Below, one piece after another: positions 27,677 to 36,346 of a DNA stretch of 64,000 bases (the first letter of the stretch is position 1; the number at the start of each line of letters is the position of its first letter). Below the pieces are notes generated by a model, which did no database searches, was not told the origin of the DNA, and saw nothing but the letters and a program-made list of their open reading frames with translations. The position numbers and the translations under genes were made by a program. Source of the DNA: Thiocapsa rosea (GTDB lineage Bacteria; Pseudomonadota; Gammaproteobacteria; Chromatiales; Chromatiaceae); the NCBI RefSeq assembly GCF_003634315.1, contig NZ_RBXL01000001.1:3328501-3392500 (forward strand), read 5' to 3'.

Positions 27677-27742
27677 GCGGTGTGTCTCCGAGGTCGGGCG
27701 GGGCACACCTCCCCGACGGGGAGATCGGCCCCGCGGGGTTGA
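27677..27742 (-). ncRNA. radC-motif-like 5' leader RNA (copy 1, before primase)
   Basis: On the minus strand: outer arm GGGGCC..., inner hairpin CTCCCCGTCGGGGAG, right arm GTGTGCCCC, then CGGAGACACACCGC-ATG with the Shine-Dalgarno. Same layout as seven other leaders in this operon region. Confidence 0.75.
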
Positions 27743-27776
27743 GTGGATTGGGTTTTTTGCGATAGTCGATAGACCG

Positions 27777-28280
27777 TCAGAGCACGCCGCGCTCGGCCAT
27801 GGAGACGGCCTCGCCGTCGCCGACGATCATGTGATCGATCACCCGCACGTCGAACAGCGAGAGGCCCTCGCGCAGTCGCTGGGTGAGGCGCAGATCGGCT
27901 TGGGAGGGCTCCGGAACACCCGAGGGGTGGTTGTGGGCGAAGATGACCGCCGCCGCGCCGGTCTCCACCACCTTGCGCAGAACCTCTCTGGGATGCACGC
28001 TGGCCCCGTCGATGGTGCCGCGGAACAATTCCTCGTAGCGGATGACGCGATGGCGGTTGTCCAGATACAGGCACGCGAACACCTCGTAGTGCAGCCCGTA
28101 GAGCCGCAGCTTGAGGAAGTTGCGCGTGGCCTCCGGATTGGTCAGGCAGTCCTGCTTGACCAGGTACTTCTGCTCCAGGCAGCGGATGGCGTTGGCCACC
28201 AGCTCCCGATCGCTTTCCGGCAGGTCGGCCCGGCGCATGTGGTCGGGTTCCAGGGGGAGTGACAGCTGGGGTTTCTTCAT
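27777..28280 (-). CDS. radC: RadC-family JAB-domain protein
   Basis: 167-aa RadC/MPN+ protein. The JAB1-type metalloprotease-like motif is complete: Glu in RYEELFRGTI (about 81-90), then VIFAHNHPSGVPEPSQADL (about 112-130), the H-x-H...S...D motif. N-terminal about 45 residues replace the UPF0758 helix-hairpin-helix region of chromosomal RadC. Short RadC proteins are typical of ICEs and plasmids; the role in DNA processing is unresolved. ATG at 28280 with GGAGACACC before it. Confidence 0.9.
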   Translation of the reverse strand: MKKPQLSLPLEPDHMRRADLPESDRELVANAIRCLEQKYLVKQDCLTNPEATRNFLKLRLYGLHYEVFACLYLDNRHRVIRYEELFRGTIDGASVHPREVLRKVVETGAAAVIFAHNHPSGVPEPSQADLRLTQRLREGLSLFDVRVIDHMIVGDGEAVSMAERGVL

Positions 28281-28356
28281 GGGTGGTGTCTCCGGGGTCG
28301 AGCGGGGAGACACGTCCCCCCGATGCGGGGAAGGGTGTCCCCGCGGGGTGGATGGC
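28281..28356 (-). ncRNA. radC-motif-like 5' leader RNA (copy 2, before radC)
   Basis: Outer stem GGGGACAC / GTGTCTCCCC, inner CCCCGCATCGGGG. The Shine-Dalgarno segment GGAGACAC is an exact complement of the right arm GTGTCTCC, allowing alternative pairing. Confidence 0.8.
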
Positions 28357-28366
28357 TGTCGGCGCG

Positions 28367-34070: not shown

Positions 34071-35087
34071 TCAGAAGTAGAAGCCGTGCTCGCTCGCCGC
34101 GGGATCCTGCATCGTGTCGAGCGCGGCTGCATCGAACGGAACGCTTGCCGTGCCGTCCTTCAGGGTCGTGATCCTGACCCGGTCGGAGGCAGTGCGGCGA
34201 TAGCGCTCCAGACTCAGCGGATCGACATCCGGGACGAGGTCCGACAACGCGGCCTTGTAGTCGATCGCTCCGGCCACGGCGTAGTGAAGTACCCGCAACC
34301 CGGCGCTCTCGCCCATCGCGAAGTCGCCCAGCAGGGTGACCAGTTGCGACTCGATGCCCTCCAGGCCCGACTTCAGGGTCTTGAGCGTCGCGTCGAGCTT
34401 GGCCTTCTCTGCGGCGAGCGTGCGGTACTCCCCGGACAGCCGTGTCCAGGTCGCCAGCTCCGTGCCGGACGGGGTGTAGAGATCCCGCACGGGATCGCGC
34501 TCGGGCTCGTGCTTTTTCTCGACCCGCTTCCGAAACTCCAGGCAGCGCGGCACCAAGGTGTCCCGGATGAAGGTCTCGTCGCGCGGGATGCGAAAGTCGA
34601 GCGCGATGCCCGGTGCCCTATGAAACACCAGCCAGCCTTCGGCGGCATCGGCGACATGGATCTGGCACTGGACCTGATGCCAATAGAGACGGTAGGCCTC
34701 CGAGGCCACACCGTGCTCCAGGACCTGCAGGTAGGTGGTCTCGTGCGGCACCTTGAGCTCGACCGGGATGCCGTCATTGTCCAGGCCGTCGAACGAGGCG
34801 CGGATGACGGGATTGGTGTCGGATTCGCCGCAGAGCGGCAGCAGCAAGGTGTCGTGGCGTTCCTCGAAGCCCTGGCGGGCGGTGTCTTCGAGCGCGTTGC
34901 CGCGCCGCACGACCGGGTTGCCGCTCAGGTCTTCGGGCAACAGCATTCCGATCTTCTCCGCCCACAGGCGCCACGGCGTCTTGTAGGGCGAGACGCCAAG
35001 AACGGCCGCGGCGTCCGAGGCCGAAACCCCGGCGTTCCGCCAGGCGTGCCAGCCGGGTGTGCGTTGGGTGATGTCGATGACGTGCAT
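34071..35087 (-). CDS. YqaJ/lambda-Exo-type recombination exonuclease
   Basis: 338 aa, start ATG 35087 (MHVIDITQRTPGWHAWR). PD-(D/E)xK nuclease of the YqaJ family: GVSASDAAAVLG (about 20), RGNALEDTAR (about 62, active-site Glu), ASFDGL (about 97, Asp), ELKVPHE (about 110, E-x-K), then QVQCQIHVA. It resects double-strand ends to make 3' single strands for the Bet annealase encoded upstream. It has a C-terminal extension with a coiled coil (about 228-260) and ends EHGFYF. The exo-bet pair is a hallmark of SXT/R391 and IncC elements. Confidence 0.9.
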   Translation of the reverse strand: MHVIDITQRTPGWHAWRNAGVSASDAAAVLGVSPYKTPWRLWAEKIGMLLPEDLSGNPVVRRGNALEDTARQGFEERHDTLLLPLCGESDTNPVIRASFDGLDNDGIPVELKVPHETTYLQVLEHGVASEAYRLYWHQVQCQIHVADAAEGWLVFHRAPGIALDFRIPRDETFIRDTLVPRCLEFRKRVEKKHEPERDPVRDLYTPSGTELATWTRLSGEYRTLAAEKAKLDATLKTLKSGLEGIESQLVTLLGDFAMGESAGLRVLHYAVAGAIDYKAALSDLVPDVDPLSLERYRRTASDRVRITTLKDGTASVPFDAAALDTMQDPAASEHGFYF

Positions 35088-35150
35088 GGGGTGCTCCAAA
35101 AGAAACAGGGGCACCGTCCCCGAGGGGCAGCGCGTGCCCCATGGGGTGGA
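35088..35150 (-). ncRNA. radC-motif-like 5' leader RNA (copy 7, before exonuclease)
   Basis: Outer GGGGCAC / GTGCCCC, inner CCCCTCGGGG, then TTTTGGAGCACCCC-ATG, whose GCACC can pair with GGTGC of the right arm. Confidence 0.8.
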
Positions 35151-35193
35151 TGATCGAATAGCCCGCGACTGCCGTCCGTGGCGGTCATGGGGT

Positions 35194-36261
35194 TTAGGCG
35201 GCCTCGGCGACGGGCGCCTCGGCGGTCTTGGCTTTTTTCGTGACGACGGACAGCGCGGCGGCTTGCTCCAACTCGGCGAGGGCGTAGGCCAGATGCGCCC
35301 CGTTGAAGCGGGCGCGGGCATAGTCCTCGGCCTGACCCCAGGCGCCGACCTTGCAGGCGCGCTCCACGAGCATGGCGACCTGCTTGGCCACCTGCGCGTC
35401 GATGACGGCATCCCGATGCGCGGGATCCGTCGGGGCGGTTTCGGAGACGGAGGTCTCGTCGATTCCGTTTGCCCGAGCGGTGTCGACCGACGCGGTGTCG
35501 GCGACTGTCGGAGTCACCTGCGGTTGGATCGTGGTCGGTTGCGCGGTGACGACCTCGCCCTCGATCACGGCTCCGTCGACGGGGGCATGGCCCTCGATGG
35601 CCTTGCCTTCCATCTCCTCGGCGGTGTAGCCGGCTTCCTCGGGAAAGGCCGCCCGCAGGCTCGCGGCTTTGGCGCATTTGAGCAGTTGTCCCTTCGGACG
35701 CTTCTGCCACATCTCGTTCGGCACCTCCGCACGGCCTTGTCGGGCATATGTCTCCTCCCAGAAGACCATCTCGGAGAAGGGGCAGCGCACCCCGTTGACC
35801 ATCCGATAGACCGTCGTTTCGGCCCACTCGGGGAAGGTCACGGTGACGGCGACCTCGGTCCACTTGTCGTCGCGCTTGACCGTTCCGGTGAAGGTCTTGG
35901 CCAGCTCCGGTCCGAAACGCGGCGAATCGAGCCCCGCCCACAGGCCGGTGCGCGCCGCCGTGATCTGGACCTCGGCGATGCCGGGCCAAACGGTCTCGAC
36001 GTAACGTCCGAGCGCGGTCGACCACATGGAAACGACGTGGACCGGGCGCTTCATCACGTCCAGGCCGCGCGCCTGGCAATAGCGCACCGCGAGGATCACA
36101 CCCTCGGGTGTCTTGGCGTTGGGGAAGATCGAGTCGGCGAGCACCGCCCAGGTTCCGGCGTCCAGGCCGATCTCGGCGAGGACGCTCGGGGCGACCGGGA
36201 GGCGGCTGGGGAGGAGCGAGGTGGTGAGGGCTTGGGTCGGGTTGTTGCGGCGCGTGGCCAT
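35194..36261 (-). CDS. bet: Bet/RecT single-strand annealing protein
   Basis: 355 aa. Recombinase core: ILAVRYCQARGLDVMKRPVH (about 56-75), then VETVWPGIAEVQITAARTG and KCAKAASLRAAFPEE (about 199-213), the RecT/Bet family pattern. A disordered, Ala/Thr-rich extension (about 225-290) precedes a final helical segment. Anneals single strands made by the exonuclease next door; can generate hybrid ICEs. First gene of the operon; a structured leader precedes it and no gene is recognised upstream for about 550 bases. Confidence 0.9.
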   Translation of the reverse strand: MATRRNNPTQALTTSLLPSRLPVAPSVLAEIGLDAGTWAVLADSIFPNAKTPEGVILAVRYCQARGLDVMKRPVHVVSMWSTALGRYVETVWPGIAEVQITAARTGLWAGLDSPRFGPELAKTFTGTVKRDDKWTEVAVTVTFPEWAETTVYRMVNGVRCPFSEMVFWEETYARQGRAEVPNEMWQKRPKGQLLKCAKAASLRAAFPEEAGYTAEEMEGKAIEGHAPVDGAVIEGEVVTAQPTTIQPQVTPTVADTASVDTARANGIDETSVSETAPTDPAHRDAVIDAQVAKQVAMLVERACKVGAWGQAEDYARARFNGAHLAYALAELEQAAALSVVTKKAKTAEAPVAEAA

Positions 36262-36346
36262 GGTGTGGTCTCCATCGGGTGGGTGAACCCGAGGAGACGC
36301 ACCTTCCCCCCGGGGAGCGGCTGTCTCCCCGGGACGGGTGAGCCGG
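36262..36346 (-). ncRNA. radC-motif-like 5' leader RNA (copy 8, before bet)
   Basis: Outer GGGGAGAC / GTCTCCTC, inner CTCCCCGGGGGGA. GATGGAGACCACACC precedes the ATG, with GGAGAC complementary to GTCTCC of the right arm. Confidence 0.8.

What the first reader, a model, noticed from the sequence alone, without database searches (positions are those of the whole stretch)
27677..36346. Eight copies of a structured leader, one before nearly every gene of the recombination module
Upstream of bet, exo, the AAA+ ATPase, DUF3150, VWA, methylase-like, radC and primase genes lies the same layout: outer GC-rich stem, inner CCCC/GGGG hairpin, a short spacer with GGAG, then the ATG. Primary sequence differs between copies but the pairing is kept; copy 5 is most diverged and still folds. 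The only gene without a copy is the translationally coupled WGR gene. This fits the radC RNA motif, known as a family before DNA-associated genes of mobile elements, whose function is to my knowledge unresolved. Eight copies in one operon is a strong setting to study it.
Basis: partly seen in the sequence, partly recalled or inferred. Interest (0 to 1): 0.9.

Follow-up and report, generated by a model that had tools for sequence, protein, structure and literature searches.

The report
Repeated RNA switch before mobile-element genes
Seven of nine DNA-handling genes of this transferable element start with the same small folded RNA, predicted to be able to hide or expose the ribosome-loading site, and the same RNA is found in an IncC plasmid and other mobile elements although no family in the RNA library searched here covers it.

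Summary
A covariance model finds seven strong matches in the window, each ending at a start codon. The eighth (DUF3150) is a different hairpin (4.2 bits). It is not the radC RNA: no Rfam family matches. The true radC RNA is another molecule, but a leader of this kind follows it within 30 nt (or overlaps its end) in 11 of 15 radC RNA copies, from six genomes.

The leader has segments p-a-b-c-d-e-ATG. p:c, a:b and d:e form a fold in which e holds the Shine-Dalgarno; a:d is a competing helix that frees it. d:e, a:b and a:d covary between leaders; control pairings much less. The a:d signal is the cleanest, because the model lacks it. The leader precedes 24 of 33 non-coupled and 0 of 6 coupled genes in one region of an IncC plasmid, and occurs in 25 of 369 genomes of the class. 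Between two related plasmids stems differ 2.0%, loops 6.9%.

Best reading: an undescribed two-state leader family controlling translation gene by gene. Trigger unknown; function untested.

The parts
36259..36341 (-). leader of bet, ends at its ATG
   Evidence: R2 41.0 bits, E 4e-7
35194..36261 (-). bet (RecT family)
   Evidence: Pfam RecT 6e-12
35085..35149 (-). leader of exo, ends at its ATG
   Evidence: R2 57.9 bits, E 8e-11
34071..35087 (-). exo (YqaJ family)
   Evidence: Pfam YqaJ 7e-22
33775..33857 (-). leader of the AAA+ ATPase gene
   Evidence: R2 39.6 bits, E 8.5e-7; by eye d:e is extended by an extra TCGGG/CCCGA stem
32824..33777 (-). AAA+ ATPase (AAA_5, CbbQ_C)
   Evidence: no Pfam family at E 0.001; no R2 match
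32387..32455 (-). DUF3150 upstream hairpin: not a member
   Evidence: R2 4.2 bits; folds of 18 DUF3150 leaders
31328..32389 (-). DUF3150 gene
   Evidence: Pfam DUF3150 5e-96
31212..31279 (-). leader of the VWA gene
   Evidence: R2 66.6 bits, E 1e-12
29415..31214 (-). VWA / CobT_C gene
29150..29216 (-). leader of the methylase-like gene (best match)
   Evidence: R2 75.3 bits, E 1e-14
29200..29207 (-). segment a (GGGGAGAG) of that leader: pairs with b or with d
   Evidence: read from the sequence; pairing tests
29189..29196 (-). segment b (CTCTCCCC): P2 with a
29183..29187 (-). segment c (GGGGG): P1 with p (CCCC at 29210-29213)
29171..29180 (-). segment d (GTGCGTCTCC): pairs with e (Shine-Dalgarno hidden) or with a
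29153..29162 (-). segment e (GGAGAGACGC): Shine-Dalgarno, followed by ATG
28367..29152 (-). N6_Mtase-like gene
28278..28351 (-). leader of radC
   Evidence: R2 44.5 bits, E 7e-8
27777..28280 (-). radC
   Evidence: Pfam RadC 2e-43
27674..27741 (-). leader of the primase gene (not in R2's training set)
   Evidence: R2 42.6 bits, E 2e-7
26618..27676 (-). primase (Zn_Ribbon_Prim, DUF7146, Toprim_3)
41726..49934 (-). conjugation genes TraN, TraU, TrbC, TraC: same strand, no leader found
   Evidence: Pfam; no R2 match at E up to 5 in this stretch

Best explanation
It is a family of cis-acting mRNA leaders with two mutually exclusive folds that controls translation initiation of each gene of the recombination/DNA-handling operon separately. 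Fold I: p pairs with c, a with b, and d with e, so the Shine-Dalgarno in e is hidden and translation is low. Fold II: a pairs with d (and b with c), so e is free. Shown by computation: the leader is conserved, P2, P3 and the competing a:d helix covary, and the element sits at start codons of non-coupled genes. Inferred: hiding e lowers translation, and fold II is the ON state. Less certain: d is made before e, so the growing RNA is predicted to pass through fold II and then settle in fold I. This would favour translation of freshly made mRNA. A protein or another signal could hold fold II instead.
For: Seven matches at start codons in the window. Covariation in P1/P2/P3: 290 cells with both sides changed against 103 in shuffles (150 rows); 193 against 67 in 88 rows from loci not used for the model. 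Register-free test, own partner against partners from other leaders: a:d z -5.4, d:e -5.0, a:b -4.5 in 16 non-redundant leaders; -10.0, -7.6, -6.9 in 26 IncC leaders; -8.6, -7.4, -9.1 in 29 others. Controls b:e, a:e, b:d lie between -2.1 and +1.1. a:d is not in the model, so model fitting cannot create it. In a:d, G.U pairs are enriched and A.C depleted against shuffled partners (36 and 2 against 19.6 and 7.4, IncC; 32 and 2 against 24.6 and 8.9, other loci), as expected for the sense strand as RNA. Full-length minimum fold has d:e in 127 of 143, 20 of 26 and 64 of 81 leaders; truncated before e, d pairs with a in 107, 23 and 56. In one region of an IncC plasmid 24 of 33 non-coupled genes have a leader, 0 of 6 coupled ones. 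Stems differ at 13 of 652 positions, loops at 45 of 655, coding at 427 of 5940 between two related plasmids.
Against: No expression, probing or mutational data exist here. Fold I is predicted about 6-7 kcal/mol more stable than fold II, so an ON state needs kinetics or a partner that has not been found. Nine of 33 non-coupled IncC genes in the region have no match. P1 covariation is weak: p:c z +0.5 and b:c -0.2 in the independent set, because these bases hardly vary. In the same set controls b:e and a:e reach z -2.1. In the columns of P1, P2 and P3 A.C mismatches are about as common as or commoner than G.U pairs (for example P3 26 G.U and 61 A.C in 143 rows, 43 and 52 in 86 rows), which does not favour RNA over DNA for those helices. 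A minority of leaders have a U-run after the a:d helix and could be terminators. The a:b and d:e scores come from alignments fitted to those pairs, and segment borders are set by alignment columns and are rough.
Confidence: 0.6

Rival explanations
1. Transcription attenuator: the a:d helix followed by a pyrimidine-rich tract acts as an intrinsic terminator between genes and the other fold is the antiterminator, so that the operon needs an antitermination factor.
For: T is enriched just after the a:d helix (2.8, 2.2 and 3.3 of 8 against 1.4, 1.65 and 1.7 expected). Some relatives have plain hairpin-plus-T-run leaders before the VWA gene (L038, L041, L042, L044, L045, L046, L047).
Against: Only 18 of 120, 2 of 24 and 18 of 62 leaders have 5 or more T in 8. 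A scan of the region finds 5 terminator-like sites against 4.4 expected, one of them at a leader. This reading does not explain the covarying d:e pairs that contain the Shine-Dalgarno.
Confidence: 0.15
2. mRNA stability or processing element: hairpins between genes protect or separate the pieces of a long operon mRNA.
For: Position between genes; very stable hairpin; conjugation genes on the same strand lack it.
Against: Placement at start codons with the Shine-Dalgarno in the paired strand, and the covarying alternative helix, are not needed for this.
Confidence: 0.1
3. DNA-level element (protein-binding palindrome, or hairpin of single-stranded DNA during transfer, as suggested for the STAXI motif near such genes).
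For: Genes act on DNA and belong to conjugative elements. The STAXI passage in PMC2864571 makes this proposal for another motif. G.U is not favoured over A.C in P1-P3 columns.
Against: The element ends at the start codon with the Shine-Dalgarno inside a helix; coupled genes lack it; sense-strand G.U enrichment and A.C depletion in a:d.
Confidence: 0.08
4. It is the radC RNA.
For: Gene context; a leader follows radC RNA in 11 of 15 copies.
Against: No match to RF01754 in window, genome or 29 related sources, while the model finds true radC RNAs elsewhere.
Confidence: 0.01

Closest known systems
radC RNA (Rfam RF01754)
   Same: Cis-regulatory candidate in Proteobacteria, found here in the same gene clusters; the two lie side by side in G453, G731, G825 and G895.
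   Different: 149-nt RNA with its own conserved sequence blocks, without the start codon; no match to the leaders of the window.
STAXI motif (described in PMC2864571, passage seen)
   Same: Near genes for ssDNA binding, integrase, topoisomerase and antirestriction proteins.
   Different: Pseudoknot repeated two or three times in tandem; not a Shine-Dalgarno-bearing leader before each gene. No Rfam family matched the leaders of the window.
Translational attenuators and riboswitch expression platforms with sequestrator and anti-sequestrator (general kind, recalled)
   Same: One strand (d) shared by two exclusive helices, one of which hides the Shine-Dalgarno.
   Different: No conserved ligand core; repeated before most genes of one operon; trigger unknown.
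Phage T4 RegA regulon and MS2 maturation-gene leader (recalled, not looked up)
   Same: RegA: many early genes repressed together at translation. MS2: translation only from freshly made RNA.
   Different: No RegA-like protein was looked for or identified; the kinetic window here is only predicted.

Membership tests
radC RNA RF01754 | Match to the Rfam model at 40 bits or more | tested here: not met
   0 matches in window, in 25500-38000 at E up to 5, and in the host genome; model works in G453 and five other genomes
radC RNA RF01754 | Conserved sequence blocks of the consensus (such as CAUGCCCAGG and CUUCAAGG) | tested here: not met
   blocks seen in true copies, absent from the seven leaders by reading
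radC RNA RF01754 | Lies before DNA-associated genes in Proteobacteria | tested here: met
   not specific to radC RNA
Shine-Dalgarno-sequestering translational leader | Shine-Dalgarno inside a conserved, covarying helix | tested here: met
   P3 7 of 7 pairs with both-side changes; mean unpaired probability of GGAG 0.17-0.19 in three sets
Shine-Dalgarno-sequestering translational leader | Competing helix that frees it | tested here: met
   a:d z -5.4, -10.0, -8.6
Shine-Dalgarno-sequestering translational leader | Expression changes when the helices are changed | not testable with these tools
   needs reporter fusions
Metabolite riboswitch | Conserved unpaired ligand-binding core | tested here: not met
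   outside helices and the ATG only the A before P1 exceeds 90% in both sets (91% and 94%)
Intrinsic terminator or attenuator | U-run directly after the stem | tested here: not met
   38 of 206 leaders in three sets have 5 or more T in 8; met in that minority
Known Rfam family of any kind | Match at gathering score over a leader in the window or a relative | tested here: not met
   window; 28 of the 29 related sources at gathering score and L073 at E up to 5. One exception: in L121 a radC RNA match (9738-9586) overlaps the 5' part of the next leader (9619-9555) by 34 bases

The most novel reading that the evidence does not exclude
One RNA switch family is the translation gate of a whole gene region in IncC plasmids and related integrative elements. 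Most independently initiated genes carry their own copy, each with its own covarying code, read by structure and not by sequence. The a:d fold opens a short window for translation of new transcripts, as after entry into a new cell, and the radC RNA is an optional sensor domain placed in front of some copies.
Probability: 0.3. Interest if true: 0.92.

Novelty: new variant of a known kind. Interest (0 to 1): 0.8.

Why it matters
IncC plasmids and related elements spread drug resistance. A region of their backbone with recombination and other DNA-handling genes carries a conserved RNA that the RNA library and the open papers searched here do not describe. It offers dozens of natural variants for testing a two-state translational switch, may help to place start codons, and puts the orphan radC RNA (listed in 2010) next to a candidate expression platform, which makes its function directly testable.

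Tried and rejected
Rejected: radC RNA identity; DUF3150 leader as eighth copy; a general intrinsic terminator; coupling to the upstream stop codon (distance to the leader runs from -4 to 277 nt in IncC); a simple duplication by-product (then b:e should be complementary too, and it hardly is: z -1.1, -0.2, -2.1). Internal promoters: none found, but 0.5 expected in shuffles, so the scan says little.

Led nowhere: first MAFFT alignments were out of register; R1 came from a greedy 7-sequence seed. Column-based G.U against A.C counts gave no RNA signal. Literature: ten answered searches listed no paper on such leaders; listings only, of open papers, so this is not proof of absence. Garriss 2013 (J Bacteriol), which I think the likeliest place for earlier notes on SXT recombination-gene expression, is not held and was not read. 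SXT itself was not examined by name.

Rows dropped: A6 37 matches, 26 used (10 antisense matches and one duplicate left out); A7 88 matches, 81 used in the register-free and folding tests; non-redundant sets 16 of 150 and 29 of 81; one search counts 20 of 21 leader pairs, leaving out the one with 29 differences; A8 holds 66 of the 81 downstream frames. In the tests of p:c and b:c the segments share a few columns with their neighbours.
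Full report
What was checked. The nine genes are RecT-family bet, YqaJ exo, AAA_5/CbbQ_C ATPase, a small gene overlapping its end, DUF3150, VWA/CobT_C, N6_Mtase-like, RadC and a Zn-ribbon/DUF7146/Toprim primase, all on the minus strand. On the same strand lie F-type conjugation genes TraC, TrbC, TraU and TraN. An IncC plasmid has TraU and TraN and then, after some other genes, AAA, ssb, bet, exo, DUF3150 and VWA, so the context is a conjugative element of that broad kind. 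The name SXT/R391-like is from recall.

Is the repeat real? Sequences and folds were read. A covariance model from seven leaders (R1) found all seven window leaders at E 0.002 or better. A second model (R2), trained on the best 150 of the 184 matches at E up to 0.1 that R1 gave in 48 sources (a few of these are antisense), scores them 39.6 to 75.3 bits; the best other match in 64 kb is 19.1 bits and antisense to one of them. Six of the seven are in the training alignment, the primase leader is not. All seven end at the ATG. R2 includes the ATG, so ending at an ATG is partly built in; the open frame behind it is not. In the host genome R2 gives 11 matches at E up to 0.1: seven here, three in a second copy of the module at 5.03 Mb and one at 3.1 Mb (150 of 2453 first-look candidates were scored, so weak copies may be missed). 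The DUF3150 leader scores 4.2 bits. Of 18 DUF3150 leaders 15 fold, by eye, as one long hairpin with the Shine-Dalgarno mostly outside it; L039, L040 and L041 fold otherwise.

Anatomy. In order 5' to 3': p (CCC), a (GGG plus a variable code), b (the complement of a), c (GGG), d (GGTG plus code plus CC), a pyrimidine-rich loop, e (GGAG plus code plus CACC), ATG. Fold I is p:c, a:b, d:e. Outside helices and the ATG, only the A before P1 is above 90% in both sets.

Covariation. On the training alignment (150 rows, 143 distinct), 290 cells have both sides of a pair changed against 103 in shuffles; P3 has such changes in 7 of 7 pairs, P2 in 5 of 6, P1 in 3 of 4. On 88 matches (86 distinct) in 16 further loci, 15 from other genomes and one from the host genome itself, none used for the model, the figures are 193 against 67, and 7 of 7, 5 of 6 and 2 of 4. 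Both alignments are fitted to the structure. I therefore scored segments by duplex energy with their own partner against partners from other leaders. a:d, d:e and a:b give z -5.4, -5.0, -4.5 (16 leaders), -10.0, -7.6, -6.9 (26 IncC leaders) and -8.6, -7.4, -9.1 (29 leaders). Controls b:e, a:e and b:d give -1.1, -0.4, -0.3; -0.2, -1.5, -0.5; and -2.1, -2.1, +1.1. In IncC the P2 loop alone against d gives -3.9 and against e +0.3. p:c and b:c give -2.2 and -3.3 in IncC, but p against a also gives -2.4 there (these segments share columns), and in the independent set p:c and b:c give +0.5 and -0.2, so these near-invariant pairs are not proven. a:d is not in the model, so its signal cannot come from fitting. 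If the leader were only a duplicated hairpin, b:e should be as complementary as a:d; it is not. Shuffling ignores relatedness of the leaders, so z is not a probability.

RNA or DNA? In the best ungapped a:d helices G.U outnumbers A.C 36 to 2 in IncC (19.6 and 7.4 with shuffled partners) and 32 to 2 in the independent set (24.6 and 8.9). a:b and d:e show no such skew there. In the alignment columns of P1-P3, A.C is about as frequent as G.U or more so, with the exception of P2 in IncC (19 G.U, 4 A.C); in d:e the A of GGAG often faces a C. The result favours pairing of the sense strand as RNA but rests on a:d and on the placement at start codons.

Energetics. Fold I is on average 6.2 kcal/mol (IncC) and 7.0 kcal/mol (150 rows) better than the best fold with the last 17 nt open. 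In RNAs cut before e, d pairs with a in 107 of 143, 23 of 26 and 56 of 81 leaders; in full-length RNAs d pairs with e in 127, 20 and 64. This predicts an order, fold II then fold I, during transcription. These are predictions at 37 C from ViennaRNA.

Where else? DUF3150 homologues occur in 31 of 194 genomes of the family, and many of the modules fetched carry the leaders. IncC plasmid NC_022522.2 has 26 matches at E up to 1 in 168 kb, all between 74.5 and 101.7 kb, 23 on the coding strand. At E up to 3 in the two stretches fetched there are 26 distinct coding-strand matches, and 24 of 33 genes with a gap of 40 nt or more have one at the annotated start, against 0 of 6 with a shorter gap or overlap. 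A relative, NZ_CP047711.1, 90.7% identical over bet and exo, has 22 coding-strand matches at E up to 0.5 in 42 kb. Between the two plasmids stem positions differ at 13 of 652, other leader positions at 45 of 655 and the first 297 nt of the genes at 427 of 5940, gaps counted as differences (one pair of 21 left out, with 29 differences, whose stems look compensated by eye). R2 matches at E up to 0.001 occur in 25 of 369 genomes of the class and 11 of 398 genomes of the phylum, two of them outside the class; both counts include the host genome, and stricter filters scored only 13-14 candidates per genome, so they are lower bounds. In 16 loci chosen from these, 81 of 88 matches open a frame of 40 codons or more. 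Among 66 of those products Pfam finds DUF3577 (5), RadC (4), DUF6573 (4), the methyltransferase DUF6094 (4), helicase domains (3), DUF3150, DUF932 and RecT (2 each), antirestriction, C5-methylase, YqaJ, AAA_5 and VWA (1 each) among the 25 of 32 families shown.

radC RNA. RF01754 matches 1 of 369 genomes of the class (G453, 4 copies) and 5 of 398 of the phylum (11 copies). Behind all 4 copies in G453 an R2 match follows, after 11-26 nt in three and overlapping the end of the radC match in one. In the other 11, a match follows after 8-20 nt in 7 (L139, L140, L143, L144, L145, L148, L149), after 129 nt in one (L141), and none in three (L142, L146, L147) (sequences). The copies are not independent: 15 come from six genomes, and the adjacency is seen in four of these. 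R2 matches are dense there (29 in 34.6 kb at E up to 5), by rough estimate about 0.02 expected per copy at such a distance; if both RNAs precede genes, nearness is less surprising than that figure. It suggests that radC RNA is an extra 5' domain on some of these leaders; what it does is unknown.

Mechanism. Shown by computation: the conserved element, two covarying alternative helices, placement at start codons. Inferred: translation control. [quoted passage not shown] carrying this over to the window is inference. Nothing identifies the trigger. Rivals are in their own section; the terminator reading is the strongest, because 38 of 206 leaders have a T-rich tract after a:d.

Literature seen: passages of PMC2864571, PMC3118119 and PMC4344509; term searches without a match in PMC2786100 and PMC10838148; listings of ten searches. 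Nothing seen describes these leaders. Subscription papers were not available.

Verdict. Seven of eight copies are real members of a structured leader family for which no Rfam 15 family matched. The radC identification fails but points to a real neighbourhood. Interest is high because the family is broad, has a measured two-state signature and lies on an IncC plasmid; function is untested.

Noticed in passing
L121:7981-11476, L135, L139, L140, L143, L144, L145, L148, L149: The orphan radC RNA (RF01754) has a leader of the family studied here within 30 nt downstream, or overlapping its end, in 11 of 15 copies from six genomes.
   Followed up: partly
L003 (host genome C1:5022500-5042000): A second, diverged copy of the recombination module in the same genome with three leaders found by R2; its bet and DUF3150 leaders look different.
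   Followed up: partly
L038, L041, L042, L044, L045, L046, L047, upstream of the VWA gene: In these relatives the leader is a plain hairpin followed by a T-run, like an intrinsic terminator just before the Shine-Dalgarno.
   Followed up: no
NC_022522.2 75045 and 99560 (L073:6387, L074:18061): Two leaders (E 9e-8 and 0.04) end at start codons that differ from the annotated ones; 99560 is 30 nt upstream of and in frame with the annotated primase start 99590, which may be misannotated.
   Followed up: partly
host genome C1:3105387-3105451 (L124:4388-4452): A lone leader outside both modules, before a frame of about 255 codons (L124:4450-5217); gene not identified.
   Followed up: no
window 23569-25322: AAA_21 ATPase followed by a small gene that resembles RloB by recall only; possibly a defence pair downstream of the module.
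   Followed up: no
window 54134-55872: UmuC-like polymerase (IMS) with a small open frame just before it; possibly a mutagenesis pair in the element.
   Followed up: no
G439:C2, three places with the same score (1502750, 3136389, 3491157): Three equal-scoring leaders in one genome, possibly copies of a repeated element.
   Followed up: no
L033:12849-13554, L121:1403-1473: Group II intron pieces beside the modules.
   Followed up: no
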